A model generated the notes under the pieces. It was not told the origin of the DNA, did not search any database, and saw only the letters and a program-made list of their open reading frames with translations. Shown piece by piece: positions 16,101-25,100 of a stretch of 64,000 nt of DNA (position 1 is the stretch's first letter; every line of letters starts with the position of its first letter). The stretch is from Apostichopus japonicus (Eukaryota; Echinodermata; Holothuroidea; Aspidochirotida; Stichopodidae). Position numbers and translations under genes: made by a program. The stretch lies in contig NC_092563.1 in assembly GCF_037975245.1 (NCBI RefSeq), forward strand, positions 23,094,960 through 23,158,959, in the 5' to 3' direction.

Positions 16101-19100
16101 ATGATCATCCAAGCCACCATGTCATTGTTTATTTCTGTTCAAATGTTTAGCAGAGAAACAAAACTGAAGAGAAAAAGACAAGAAATAATCACTTCTGATG
16201 CCTTACCACAGGATCTTTCACAATTGCATGTAGACCTATGATGTTGGGTCCGCCTCGTAAATTCTCCAGAATCTTAATCTCACGTTTTATTTTCTTTTTC
16301 TTTACCGGCTGAGAAGAAATAAACAATTGTTGGGACAAATGTAAATAGAAATTTTTTACACTTAAATGTATTTAAAGCATGATGTTGCATAAAAATATAA
16401 AATCACATGACCAACAAAGAGAAAGTAATAGGGTTCCACCTACACTGTACTGGTGGCACCATTTCATCACAGATTAACAACATGTAATCCACCTAACAAG
16501 GTTATTAATTCCTCATATATCTCCCACAGAGAACAAGATTTGCCTCAGACATTTGTGGGACTTTTTTCATAGTTACAATATATATCGTTACCTAGAGGTG
16601 ACACCTGAGGTTTTTGCCTCTCTGTTACAAATTCAAAACGAAACTCCAAAAACAGCACGTGTATGCAAAAATGATGCAACACTGAACCGGAATTTGTCAA
16701 ATCTGTAATACTGAACAAGCCTACAGCATAGCACAGTGGTACATTATGTGTCAGAATGTTAACACCTCCCAATCAGATAAAGGTCAAAGTCATTTTCAAG
16801 TGCTGATATTTACAGCAAGGATTCAACAGTTCAAATGTTGTCAATTATAAAAAAGGCAAAAAAGGAAATTTTTTTTTAACTGATGGGAAATCATATAAAA
16901 CATCTCATTTCCCAAAGCACAGTGAATAATTTAGTGTTCAAATTTTGTGTAGCAGTAATAAAGGCTCTTGACTTTTGTCTCATACACTATGGTTTCTGTG
17001 TACACAAACTGCTATGATTATCTTTCCACTTCAACAGCAAGTTGCCCATTTTGCATAGCAATTTGCAATGTGATAATGGATGAATTATTCCCCCGTTATG
17101 GATGTCCAGATGTTACAGTGATACCCTAATGTCATGTACATTTTTACTTTTTTTTTCTCATTTTTTGGTGACTTAATTGGGAAACACACCCCACCCATAT
17201 TTTTGTTCTATGTTTAGTGACTCAGCAATTATCGCCAATGAACTACTATAGAAGTAACGAACTGTAATGTCTTGACTACACTTTCCCTGAATTGGTCATT
17301 TAATTTTCAAATTTCTGTCACTGAAATAGAGAATATGCTCTAATTACTACAATAAGAATGTTAATTATTCTGTCTATTTCTTAGCATAAATCTTGTGGAT
17401 AAATTTGAACCCCTTAAATCATGCTTTTTAACCAGTACTTACTAGCAAACAAAAACATCTACAGCATGGAAATATAATGAGAAGGATATTAGTGAAAATA
17501 CAAGTAGCGTGGACGAAAACTGAAAAAAAACTTGAAACTTACCTTTAATATTTTAATCACACACTTTTCATTGCTTGTGATGTTAACAGCTTCAAAGACT
17601 TCACTATATTTACCTCTGCCTAATTTCCTTACAATTTGATAATCATCTTGTTGTCTGGGGATGGAAAGTAAGAATAATTGTATTAAAACTATGTTTTTCG
17701 AGAGAGAGAGAGAAATCTCCAGTATAGCATTTAATAAAGGAGATACACAATTTGAACCATCAGCTTTGACAAGTTTACTCGAATATAAAGTTGTAAATAA
17801 ACATTAGCTTGTCCTCTTTTTTGTTCTGCCCAATTTTGTATCATCTTGCAAATTAGGGTTAAAAACTCCAAAACTTACTGGTTTGGATATTTACGAGTGA
17901 CGAGCTTACCTGTCTCCCCCCAACCTATGCACCTCATTCTACCGCGCCTAGAATGTCCTGGTAACCTTTTAACACTGTGCACCCTCTGTGACCCGGCTTC
18001 ACGGGTCACCAACCTTCCTTCTCATGAGACCAAAGCCCCTCCAAAGTGGTCTCTGCCTTGGAGTCGAGTAGTAGTCCTTCCCGACAAATGGGAGGGCTAC
18101 CCCCTCGACTCCTAGTCTAACATCGAATTTCTGACGCTTCCAACGGGAGGGGTAGTACTCCCCTTCCTGTGGGGAGGGGGGGCTACCCTCTACGACCCCG
18201 TCAGCCTGTACCCCTTAGGTCTAAAAAAGGTAGCAGAAGGTACTCTACAAGTTAGGCCCAAGGCCCTGAACACCGTAGTGTTTAATGGAGAAAGACGAAG
18301 GAAAAAGAGTATCAACATTATAAAGGAAATATCTATATAACGCTTCTCCATATATATATAAAACACTTTAAGACACTCTTCCTTAAGTCACTCATAGTGG
18401 CCCTAAGTTACTACGAGATACTACAAGTTACTACCGTTTACTACAAGTTACTACCGGTTACTACCGGTCAAGATAAAACTATCTTTGCAACAAACTCGCT
18501 GGTAACCATAGGTGATGGTACGGGGGGGCTCGTACGGTAGTGGAACCTCCTTTCCTCAGGTCTCTTGGCCTGTGCTAGAAGGTGTTTTGTTAAGTCAATG
18601 AGACCGCTCCTCCGTGCGGCTGTGTTCCACCCCCCTCGGGGGAGGGAGGCGGGAATGGAGACAGGTAAGCTCGTCACTCGTAAATATCCAAACCAGTAAG
18701 TTTTGGAGTATTTACTTCGTTCCTCGCTTACCTGTCTCCCCCCAACCTATGCACCGAGTGGCACTGCCCGATGGTGGGAGGCCCGAGGGGTGGGACCTAG
18801 TACCCGCCGGATCTCGCATCACCACGCTACGAAATGCCGCCTCAGCCTGTAATGAGTCTGAAAGGTAACAGGCGACGAACGTCGTTGGTGTCCGCCAAGC
18901 TGCTGCCTTGAGGATGACCTCTATTGGGACTCCTGCAAAAAGAGCTGTCGAGGCCGCTTTTCCTCTAATGTCATGGGCTCTCGTTAAAGTTGTGCCAACT
19001 GCGAAGGGGCGAATAATCTCCATCAGCCACCGAGAGAGGGTGTCCTTAGACACCGTTGAAAAAGGTGCTCTGGGTAGTATGAACAAGGACATGGTTGTTC

Positions 19101-22100: not shown

Positions 22101-25100
22101 CGAGGCCGGTCTCGGATCCGGAGTGGAACCTCGGTTCTTCACTCCCTCTGGGGTCTCGCCGGACCCGGGCTCCCGGAGCCCATCTCTGTGTGTACCACGC
22201 CGAGTACCACTCTCCTCGACCCGGACATTCTGTCCGTTCCGGTCGGAATTTCTAATGGGCTTTACATTGGCTTTTAGCCTTGCCCTTGCCTCCCCCTTGG
22301 TCATACAATCCGGACGTCGCCGGGACCTTGGGTTCTGGTCGGAATTTCTAATGGGCTTTACATTGGCCTAGGCCTTGCCCTTGCCTGCCCCCTTGGTCAT
22401 ACAATCCGGACGTCGCCGGGACCTTGGGGGGCAAAAACTCTTTCCTCTCTCTCTATCTCTCTCCTCCGGAAGGGGAGTCTCGTACATCAGCTAGTACAGT
22501 GCGCCAAGCCATTAGGCCACTCTATGTGTTCTTGGCCACTCCCCATTCTATCTCTTAACGACTCTTTGGCTTCTTCCTCACCTCCAGTCTCTCCTACAAT
22601 TCCCTCCCCTCTCGGAGAACCGTTGGGGGTACGGGATGGTTTCCAGTTTGTCCCGGAGCTTCGAATGCTTGCTAGCCAGCCAAGTGTATAATTCTTGCCA
22701 AGGAGCTGGCGTAAACAAGATTTAGACCAACAAGGGTCTCTGGGCTACAGGTCCTGCCTCTGGGGCAAGGATCCTGGCCAATCCCCGCCCGATCCGGGCG
22801 GAACATCAAAACAATTGACATAATTCAAGTGGCTCCGAGTACATGATTGAAAAACTCACGGTAGGAAGGCTAGGAAAGGTAGTCTATCGTAAGAACGTAA
22901 ACTAACCAAGGGAGTGGAAGGAGCGGGGTGGGGAGACTAGAATTGCCTTTGCGGTTTTTGATCGCGATAACTTTCGTGGGAATTTCGTAGAAACTTCGTT
23001 GACAACCGTGCCCGCAGTGGTCTAAATTTTGTCAACGAACTTATTCGTTTACAACCTTTTTTTTTTTTTTTTTTTTCTTTTTTTTGATTTTTATTTGATT
23101 TTTATTTTTTTTTTTTTTTTTTCAACGTTTGTTATCGATCGTTGGTTTTTTTTTTTTTTTTTTTTTTCAACGGGAGTTAAGCGAAACAGTACTGTACGCT
23201 ACAAGAGTGAAACCAACACTTAGAAAAACGACCAAGTAACGAAGTACATGAAACGAGCAAACATCTTATAAGAAAAATAACAGATAAAAACATGTACAGA
23301 TAAGAACATGTAAACAAGGCGAGAACCGCCCATTCGCGCTAATGCGAAAAGGGGGTCGTGGTTACAAGGTACGCTACAAAAGTGAAAACCCAACACTTAA
23401 AAGCGAACAAGTAACGAAAGCATGGAAGGCAAAAAAATTTTTCTCTTGGCCGGAGCCTGGCCCTTCTCTTTCTCTGTCCACACTCTCTTCCTCGGCCCCC
23501 TCTCACCACCTCTCCTTCCTCTTCCTCTCCTATCTGTACTAGGTCTCCCACTACTAGGGAGCCGCTGGGGTTGGGGAGCAAGTCTAGTATGTTCTGTAGC
23601 TATATTCTAAGTCCTGCTAGCCAGGTAATGATAATTAGCCAAGGAAGGGGGTGAACTGGGAACACACCAGACACGGGACCCTCCTGGAAAAAGTACGGCA
23701 CTAGGGACAAGGGCAAGTTCATCCCCGGCCCTCACTGGCCGGAACATGGAGCAATCAATGCATTTCAGCTGATTCCTAGACATGACTGAATGACCCCTAG
23801 TTAAGGGAACAACTTCTTAACAATATGATAGGAGAAGCCCCCTTCTTTGGGGAGGAAAACAGCTAACAAGGAAGAGATAGGTATAATGTAAACATTTACA
23901 AATAAGTGTAATTATAAATATGATATACCCATGTAGTATAAATTAATATACACATGTGGTATAAGGATAATAAAATATACACACATGGTAAGGGCAATGC
24001 GATACTACCTTAACACCGTGCCTCGGCTAGAGGCCCGCGGCTTACAAGGTAACAGAATAGGCATAAGGCCAGCCCACAAAAAGGTGGGAAAAAGCCAGGA
24101 ACGAGCCTGGGAGCAAGGAAGGGACAAGTAATATAGATATATAACGTATAAAGCAACGATAATACAAGAGAAGTAGAGTAGTTAACAACTAAACAACGGG
24201 TGAGGGAAAGAACTAACGCAATAGCGTGTGTAGCCAAAAAAGGCGGGAACTAGCGTAACTACGGTAAACAATTCGCGGAACTGCTACCAGTACTAGAGTT
24301 CTGCACAGAAAAAAGCGGAGCGAACGCCGCTCCCGAAAAACAGCCCTAAAAACCTCTCTAAAGAAAGAAAAGGATACTTATCGGGCTGCAAAGACTTCAA
24401 ATACTTCCAAAAACAGTGGATGGGAAAATATTTCCGATCCTAGGAACCAAAAGTGGACGAAATTCGGTGGAAAATATCCGCTCGAAAAAATACGAAGTAG
24501 ACGCTTTGGTTGGTAGAATGAGAAGGAAGGTTGGTGACCCGTGAAGCCGGGTCACAGAGGGTGCACAGTGTTAAAAGGTTACCAGGACATTCTAGGCGCG
24601 GTAGAATGAGGTGCATAGGTTGGGGGGAGACAGGTAAGCGAGGAACGAAGTAAATACATTAAACTTGAGATTATTTTAACCATCGTATTGAATATATAAT
24701 GGCAGCAGGTCATAGCACCCCACTCAAAAAAAAAATGTCTATCCTTTTGAGTGATACAGGAAGTTAAAAATCACATGCAGGCTATTAAGGAAGACTTGTT
24801 ACTGGCCAGGTCTGCTCTTTATACAATCAATTGAACACACTAATTGGTTCCTTTTTCAGTATGGGTTATACAGGGACTTGAAAATCGCTAGAATACCACC
24901 TTTTTTGTAACACAAAGTACTGAAACTATTTAGCATAGAAATCCTATTAATGAGAACACAATACTGTACCATAAAGTGACACACTTCCTTCAACTAATAA
25001 ATAGATCAACTTGGACACAATGAACTGTAAATATTTAATATTCATCACATGAGTTTACAGTAATTCACCTTTAAATTATTGTTAAGGTAGAGAAGTCCGA

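What the first reader, a model, noticed from the sequence alone, without database searches (positions are those of the whole stretch)
17865..24657. Complete DIRS architecture: identical inverted repeats plus an internal copy of the circle junction
The internal region 18657-18755 equals the reverse complement of the right terminus joined to the left terminus, fused at a shared GT. The 122-bp inverted repeats are identical. This pins the element ends to the base and shows the circular-intermediate geometry known for DIRS elements. The identical repeats suggest recent activity in this genome.
Basis: partly seen in the sequence, partly recalled or inferred. Interest (0 to 1): 0.75.

Follow-up and report, generated by a model that had tools for sequence, protein, structure and literature searches.

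The report
RT-less DIRS element with hybrid interior
This is a jumping gene of the DIRS type that has lost the enzyme needed to copy itself, carries an interior resembling an older defective lineage between ends resembling a more complete family, and has still multiplied, probably by using other elements' machinery.

Summary
The repeat geometry is real: 18657-18755 equals the joined ends, and the 122-bp inverted repeats are identical. The 23 subfamily copies read share the same ends. Two corrections. The right end is 24655, not 24657; the trailing AC is target DNA (6 of 23 copies), so the 'shared GT' is coincidence. And the element is not complete: the RT domain is absent in 23 of 23 copies and gag is in pieces. 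It is a mosaic: outer parts resemble RT-bearing DIRS1-like relatives (L001, L002), while the interior (19696 to about 23435) resembles an older lineage in which a non-coding block stands at the RT position, 9 of 9 loci read out of 17 found. The interior still reached at least 23 places. Its recombinase gene looks neutral among 16 in-frame copies, and three near-identical copies of a sister RT-less group share the same recombinase breaks. This points to mobilisation in trans. Matching changes in both ends and the internal region fit the published, not fully proven, model that the internal region templates the ends. Identical repeats are no clock here; private substitutions do indicate recent insertion.

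The parts
17862..17864 (.). AAA just outside the left end (target or crossover bases). The second base outside the left end is A in 23 of 25 copies; the base next to the end is A 11, T 8, C 6, G 0
   Evidence: flanks of 25 copies
17865..17903 (.). left terminal extension, complementary to the left ICR but absent from the other ITR
17904..18025 (+). left inverted terminal repeat, 122 bp identical to the right one
18657..18709 (-). left ICR, reverse complement of 17865-17917
18710..18712 (.). circular junction trinucleotide ATT (AAT on the other strand)
   Evidence: derived, compared with Table 3 of PMC3266345
18710..18755 (+). right ICR, reverse complement of 24610-24655
18712..19728 (-). tyrosine recombinase ORF, 338 aa. 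Homologous to the last ~317 aa of the 988-aa YR ORF of L001; no selection seen among 16 in-frame copies
19696..21400 (.). block without a consistent ORF, at the position where RT lies in RT-bearing relatives; matches the older RT-less loci (75-91% per 300-bp segment)
21457..24082 (-). fragments of gag homology in several frames
   Evidence: tblastn with the L001 792-aa ORF
23494..24509 (.). right outer segment, matches L001 and L002 (75-82%); 23836-24008 has no nucleotide match
24518..24639 (-). right inverted terminal repeat, 122 bp
24640..24655 (.). right terminal extension; the element ends at 24655 (...GTAAAT)
24656..24657 (.). AC: target DNA, not part of the element
   Evidence: 6 of 23 subfamily copies have AC here

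Best explanation
The feature is one copy of a non-autonomous DIRS1-type retrotransposon subfamily. It keeps the sequences expected to be needed in cis: inverted repeats, terminal extensions and the internal circle-junction copy. It does not encode reverse transcriptase or RNase H, its gag is broken, and its recombinase ORF, though open, is not under detectable selection. The subfamily arose by recombination, probably template switching between co-packaged RNAs (inferred), which placed the interior of an older RT-less DIRS lineage between the ends of an L001/L002-like element. It then multiplied with gag, RT, RNase H and recombinase supplied in trans. The RNA is copied, the ICR serves as template to rebuild the ends, a circle forms, and recombinase inserts it, mostly after an A-N dinucleotide, without target duplication. 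Shown here: anatomy, missing RT, mosaic similarity pattern, copy number, empty site, lack of selection on YR, coupled changes of ends and ICR. Inferred: the trans supply, the template switch, the RNA and circle steps.
For: Copies: 23 places (window included) hold the interior block at 94-100% (40 of 475 candidates scored); 20 of them were read and align over nearly the whole element. RT: tblastn at E up to 10 with L001's RT/RNase H ORF (RVT_1 E = 4.2e-25) finds its last 20 aa in 22 of 23 copies and nothing of the RT domain in any; L017 and L018 each show one further chance-level match in residues 673-732 (E 7.2 and 3.4). ORFs from the rest gave no credible Pfam domain. Mosaic. Older RT-less lineage: 9 of 9 loci read (of 17 found) lack RT while keeping remnants from RNase H onward and of YR. 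YR: 39 nonsynonymous and 13 synonymous changes among 16 in-frame copies, neutral expectation 70% nonsynonymous. Sister copies L028, L035, L036 are 98.5-99.3% identical in the block and have the same frame breaks and the same missing stretch in YR. Coupling: same derived state in both ITRs at seven positions, and in the ICR at the two of them that it overlaps; the five right-end differences between L001/L002 and the window recur in their right ICR. Empty site.
Against: The YR ORF is open in 15 of the 16 copies compared, which could mean it is used; but these 16 were chosen from 23 because they stay in frame, which by itself disfavours broken ORFs. On the branch leading to the subfamily YR shows some constraint (N:S 26:28, 23:20 and 25:20 with three outgroups), explicable by its earlier life in an RT-bearing element. 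In the terminal extensions, where the ICR is the only partner, no coupled change was seen among the 23 copies, only one-sided ones; coupling there rests on a single L001/L002 difference. Gene conversion between repeats could also couple the ends. No expression, circle or trans-complementation data. Absence of RT was tested by tblastn and Pfam, not by fold.
Confidence: 0.8

Rival explanations
1. A complete, autonomous, recently active DIRS element.
For: Termini, ICR and an open YR ORF are present.
Against: No RT domain, gag in pieces, interior shared with other RT-less loci.
Confidence: 0.03
2. The RT-less subfamily moves as a Crypton-like DNA transposon: its own recombinase excises a circle and reinserts it, with no reverse transcription.
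For: YR is the only long ORF with a full-length homologue and is open in 15 of 16 in-frame copies.
Against: No selection on YR among copies; a sister RT-less group multiplied with a broken YR; coupled changes of both ends and ICR suggest templated copying.
Confidence: 0.06
3. The RT-less copies are dead remnants multiplied by segmental duplication, not transposition.
For: The RT domain and intact gag are lost.
Against: The 23 copies read have the same exact ends with visibly different flanks, and one lies cleanly inside a 90-bp tandem unit.
Confidence: 0.01
4. Non-autonomous and trans-mobilised, but repeat and ICR coupling comes from gene conversion in the genome rather than from ICR-templated synthesis.
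For: Conversion between inverted repeats is a known process (general knowledge). Among the 23 copies no coupled change lies in the terminal extensions.
Against: At 17920 and 17927 the state is shared by both ends and the ICR about 6 kb apart, while 12 other ITR positions changed on one side only, as expected if coupling happens at transposition and not afterwards.
Confidence: 0.1

Closest known systems
DIRS1-like retrotransposons (DIRS-1 of Dictyostelium; PMC3266345, sections 3 and 10 read)
   Same: Inverted terminal repeats, terminal extension, two ICRs fused at an AAT-type junction, start with ATT in sense, no target duplication, DIRS-type recombinase
   Different: No RT, RNase H or intact gag; 6,791 bp against 3,793-6,283 bp in Table 3 of that paper; interior resembles another lineage
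L001 and L002, RT-bearing relatives in the same genome
   Same: Similar termini (92% and 91% over the first 301 bp), YR 83% identical; L001 carries RT and RNase H by Pfam
   Different: They have an RT/RNase H ORF (interrupted in L002) and a 988- or 983-aa YR ORF where the window copy has the non-coding block
SIRE, the non-autonomous version of VIPER in trypanosomes (passage of PMC6681497)
   Same: Truncated YR retroelement that keeps its ends
   Different: VIPER family, short, defined by 185 bp and 220 bp of the VIPER ends around about 30 bp, so no room for a recombinase ORF
Non-autonomous Cryptons (passage of PMC3212892)
   Same: Non-autonomous derivatives that keep the ends of a recombinase element
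   Different: Cryptons are DNA transposons; no terminal repeats were found in the animal Cryptons of that paper

Membership tests
DIRS1-like superfamily | Inverted terminal repeats with extension | tested here: met
DIRS1-like superfamily | Two ICRs complementary to the two ends and fused at a trinucleotide | tested here: met
   junction ATT/AAT
DIRS1-like superfamily | NTT at both ends | tested here: inconclusive
   Sense start ATT in 23 of 23 copies; at the other end the bases outside read NT in 23 of 25 and NTT in 8 of 25 (counted by eye)
DIRS1-like superfamily | Insertion without target duplication | tested here: met
   empty site of one copy, L007, in a tandem array where 10 of 11 complete units read across the site without the element
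DIRS1-like superfamily | Tyrosine recombinase | tested here: met
   338-aa ORF, 83% identical to the YR of L001; Pfam Phage_integrase only below cut-off, E = 0.023
DIRS1-like superfamily | RT and RNase H | tested here: not met
   present in L001
DIRS1-like superfamily | Methyltransferase domain | tested here: inconclusive
   The part of the L001 ORF downstream of RNase H, where the MT lies in DIRS1, has no match in the window except its last 20 aa. Pfam recognised no MT in L001 either, so the label MT is by position only
DIRS1-like superfamily | Intact gag | tested here: not met
   3-8 separate matches in several frames in the 20 near-full-length copies, against one in L001 and two in L002
DIRS1-like superfamily | Circular DNA intermediate | not testable with these tools
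   needs reads or cells
PAT-like elements | Split direct repeats instead of inverted repeats | tested here: not met
   the ends are inverted repeats
Cryptons | YR transposon without the ITR/ICR arrangement | tested here: not met
   ITR and ICR present

The most novel reading that the evidence does not exclude
A lineage of DIRS elements without reverse transcriptase has persisted beside RT-bearing DIRS families long enough to split into several subfamilies, and it renews its parasitism by recombining its interior between the ends of a currently active helper family. The paired mutations in its ends and ICR are a natural record of ICR-templated end synthesis.
Probability: 0.5. Interest if true: 0.65.

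Novelty: new variant of a known kind. Interest (0 to 1): 0.5.

Why it matters
In the held library, listings and passages showed me no description of a multiplied RT-less DIRS1-like family, while non-autonomous derivatives are described for VIPER and Cryptons. If right, DIRS proteins can act in trans, and the 23 copies show which sequences suffice in cis. A review states that the DIRS-1 replication model, with ends rebuilt from the ICR, is not fully proven (PMC5633606, passage). The coupled changes found here are sequence evidence in its favour, and the place where coupling stops in L001 and L002 (base 53 of the left end) hints at the boundary of the copied stretch.

Tried and rejected
Rfam and tRNA scans of 17500-25000 found nothing. 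The interior block was examined for coding sequence by comparing ORFs of ten loci; no long ORF is consistent, and Pfam gave only sub-threshold, implausible hits. The first count of YR changes was wrong because one copy (L016) slipped out of register after its stop; it was repeated with the stop masked and the first result discarded. In one search the pattern for the left end failed on L021, so the automatic flank tally there contains one bad row; flank counts given here come. My notebook says 17 of 24 copies with identical ITRs and 22 of 25 for the flanking A; the correct counts are 16 of 23 and 23 of 25. Rows dropped before the YR count: 7 of 23 copies. L018, L019, L020 and L022 have lengths out of frame, L021 and L023 have several gaps, L024 is partial. 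One search printed RT results for five loci only; all 23 were checked. Dating by ITR identity was considered and rejected. A single origin of all RT-less elements judged by YR was considered and rejected: the window YR is nearer to L001 and to L029-L031 than to the older RT-less loci, which led to the mosaic reading.
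Full report
What was checked. The window is G000:C3:23094960-23158959. The repeat finder returns the geometry described: ITR arms 17904-18033 and 24510-24639 (98% over 130 nt; 122/122 identical over 17904-18025), left ICR 18657-18714 against 17860-17917, and right ICR 18708-18755 against 24610-24657. Over the element proper, the left end equals its ICR at 53 of 53 bases and the right end at 46 of 46. The coding strand is the minus strand, so in sense the element starts at 24655 with ATT and the ICR lies near its 3' end, as in DIRS1-like elements (PMC3266345 sections 3 and 10).

Ends. Searches of the own genome with each end (40 candidates scored of 2,427 and of 2,249) gave paired ends. 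I read 22 further copies of the subfamily (L003-L024) plus two relatives (L001, L002). Of these 25, 24 begin ACTCC and one (L021) ACTCA. In the 23 subfamily copies the right end is GTAAAT and the next two bases vary; AC occurs in 6 of 23, the window being one. Hence 24656-24657 is target DNA. Outside the left end the second base is A in 23 of 25, the adjacent base A 11, T 8, C 6, and the third T 10, A 8, G 6, C 1. Copy L007 sits in a 90-bp tandem array, where 10 of 11 complete units read TTTATAT-TTGTAG across the site (the other has one different base); the filled site is TTTATAT-[ACTCC...GTAAAT]-TTGTAG: insertion without duplication, and the AC at the left end comes from the element. L008, in an imperfect 19-bp repeat, agrees by eye.

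What is missing. The relative L001 has a 739-aa ORF with RVT_1 (E = 4.2e-25) and RNase H (1.6e-7), a 988-aa ORF whose C-terminal part is the recombinase, and a 792-aa gag-like ORF without Pfam match. L002 is similar, but its RT/RNase H ORF is interrupted and its gag match falls in two pieces. In the window element, tblastn finds the last ~317 aa of the recombinase (83%) and gag only in fragments in several frames. Of the RT/RNase H ORF, 22 of 23 subfamily copies match only the last 20 aa, L024 nothing; at E up to 10 the only other matches are one each in L017 and L018 within residues 673-732 (E 7.2 and 3.4). Gag gives 3-8 matches in each of the 20 near-full-length copies, one in L001. Nine more ORFs (eight from the window, one from L028) gave no credible Pfam domain, and Rfam and tRNA scans were empty.

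The interior. The block 20300-21350 occurs at 94-100% in 23 places (window included) and at 79-84% in 17 more, with nothing between (40 of 475 candidates scored). Of the 23, 20 were read (window, L003-L021); three (C16:26060916, C12:11478636, C2:15268416) were not fetched. Of the 17 older places I read nine (L025-L028, L033-L037). In 9 of 9 the block stands beside DIRS parts, the matches to the RT/RNase H ORF begin only at residue 430-490, and no RT match was found (tblastn E up to 0.01); gag matches were found in 8 of 9 (not L026). The block has no consistent long ORF. I infer that loss of RT is old and shared in that lineage.

Mosaic. In 300-bp segments the outer parts of the window element match L001/L002 with the best coverage (17865-19665: 67-92%; 23565: 75-76%; 24165-24655: 81-92%). 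Within segments 18465 and 18765 some other loci give shorter matches of equal or higher identity (up to 93% over about 163 nt). From 19696 to about 23435 L001/L002 have no nucleotide match apart from short repeats near 22278-22462, though gag fragments match at protein level; the older RT-less loci match here at 70-91%. The window recombinase is 83% identical to L001/L002 and 75-77% to three families with open frames near 1,000 aa (L029-L031), but 29-70% in pieces to the older RT-less loci. The simplest reading is recombination that put an RT-less interior between the ends of an L001-type element. Segments 22965 and 23865 have no match and 18165 is weak.

Is the recombinase used? In 16 copies that stay in frame (of 23 read), 52 changes are 39 nonsynonymous and 13 synonymous; neutral expectation is 70% nonsynonymous, and the observed 75% is not lower. 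Changes shared by two or more copies are 20 and 7. One of the 16 (L016) has a stop. The seven left out: L018, L019, L020 and L022 have lengths out of frame, L021 and L023 several gaps, L024 is partial. On the stem of the subfamily (judged from six copies) N:S is 26:28, 23:20 and 25:20 with three outgroups, against 14-17 to 25-32 on the L001/L002 branch; the window branch against L002 gives Fisher P = 0.22, 0.07 and 0.04. This fits a gene that was under constraint in an RT-bearing ancestor and then released. In another RT-less group, L028, L035 and L036 (98.5-99.3% identical in the block; 495 of 502 or better in YR) have the same frame breaks in YR and lack the same residues 731-820, so that group multiplied without a working recombinase of its own. 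Both facts favour supply in trans. Possible helpers are plentiful: the YR search lists 119 matches (966 candidates), many in open frames near 1,000 aa.

Evidence for ICR-templated ends. Among 23 copies, the same derived state occurs in both ITRs at seven positions (17920, 17927, 17934, 17965, 17989, 18011, 18013). At the two of them inside the ICR overlap (17920 in L018-L020; 17927 in L021) the ICR carries it too, and a one-base deletion in L023 is in all three places. Twelve other ITR positions changed on one side only, as expected for decay after insertion. Against: in the terminal extensions the 23 copies show only one-sided changes (L013, L018, L020, L021, and a 16-nt deletion in the left ICR of L012), none coupled. 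Comparing L001 and L002 (identical to each other here) with the window, the five differences in the right end recur in the right ICR, one of them in the extension; at base 53 of the left end L001 and L002 differ from their own left ICR, marking a limit of the coupling. In-genome gene conversion is the main alternative.

Age. ITR identity is no clock: 16 of 23 copies have 122/122, among them L007, which is 95.0% identical to the window overall. In a tree of 20 copies the window branch is 0.0008, with 5 private substitutions in 6,660 sites; L008 and L011 have one each, L021 has 55. Activity is therefore recent and went on over time; no clock was available.

Host. The genome has 671,581,487 bases in 35 contigs; Apostichopus japonicus was published at 671.60 Mb, 34 scaffolds, 23 chromosomes (PMC10344927, passages). 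The identification is inferred from size only. The word DIRS does not occur in that main text.

Literature. Searches gave no described RT-less multiplied DIRS1-like family in the titles, abstract starts and passages that I saw; subscription papers and Repbase entries are outside that library, so this is weak evidence of novelty. Known relatives: SIRE for VIPER and non-autonomous Cryptons. I read two sections and passages of PMC3266345; abstract and passages of PMC9210276; and passages only of PMC3783388, PMC4157794, PMC8498967, PMC3212892, PMC6681497, PMC5633606 and PMC10344927.

Noticed in passing
window 17489-17803 (-) and 36155-36538 (-): Exons of casein kinase II alpha: the first matches residues 35-72 of CK2 alpha structures; the second ends in a peptide that I recognise from memory as its N-terminus. 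The element therefore probably lies in an intron, in the sense of the gene, about 210 bp before an exon.
   Followed up: partly
L025 (C7:13175800-13183800), about 1-6300: Looks like a tandem arrangement of an RT-less DIRS in which two units share one terminal repeat (YR-ICR-ITR followed by gag remnant, block and RNase H remnant), as from a circle or dimer.
   Followed up: no
L025, L026, L033, L034: A second fragment of the recombinase gene (about residues 750-810 of the 988-aa ORF, to 852 in L025) sits between the non-coding block and the RNase H remnant in older RT-less loci, a possible trace of the original rearrangement.
   Followed up: no
window 54295-55472 (+): ORFs resembling a reverse transcriptase followed by a GIY-YIG-like endonuclease, as in Penelope-like elements; judged by eye.
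   Followed up: no
window 61819-62166 (+): ORF that by eye resembles mitochondrial ribosomal protein S17.
   Followed up: no
L032 (C17:22405000-22408700): Two recombinase matches (80% and 94%) lie about 1.25 kb apart on the same strand, suggesting neighbouring or nested elements of the two types.
   Followed up: no
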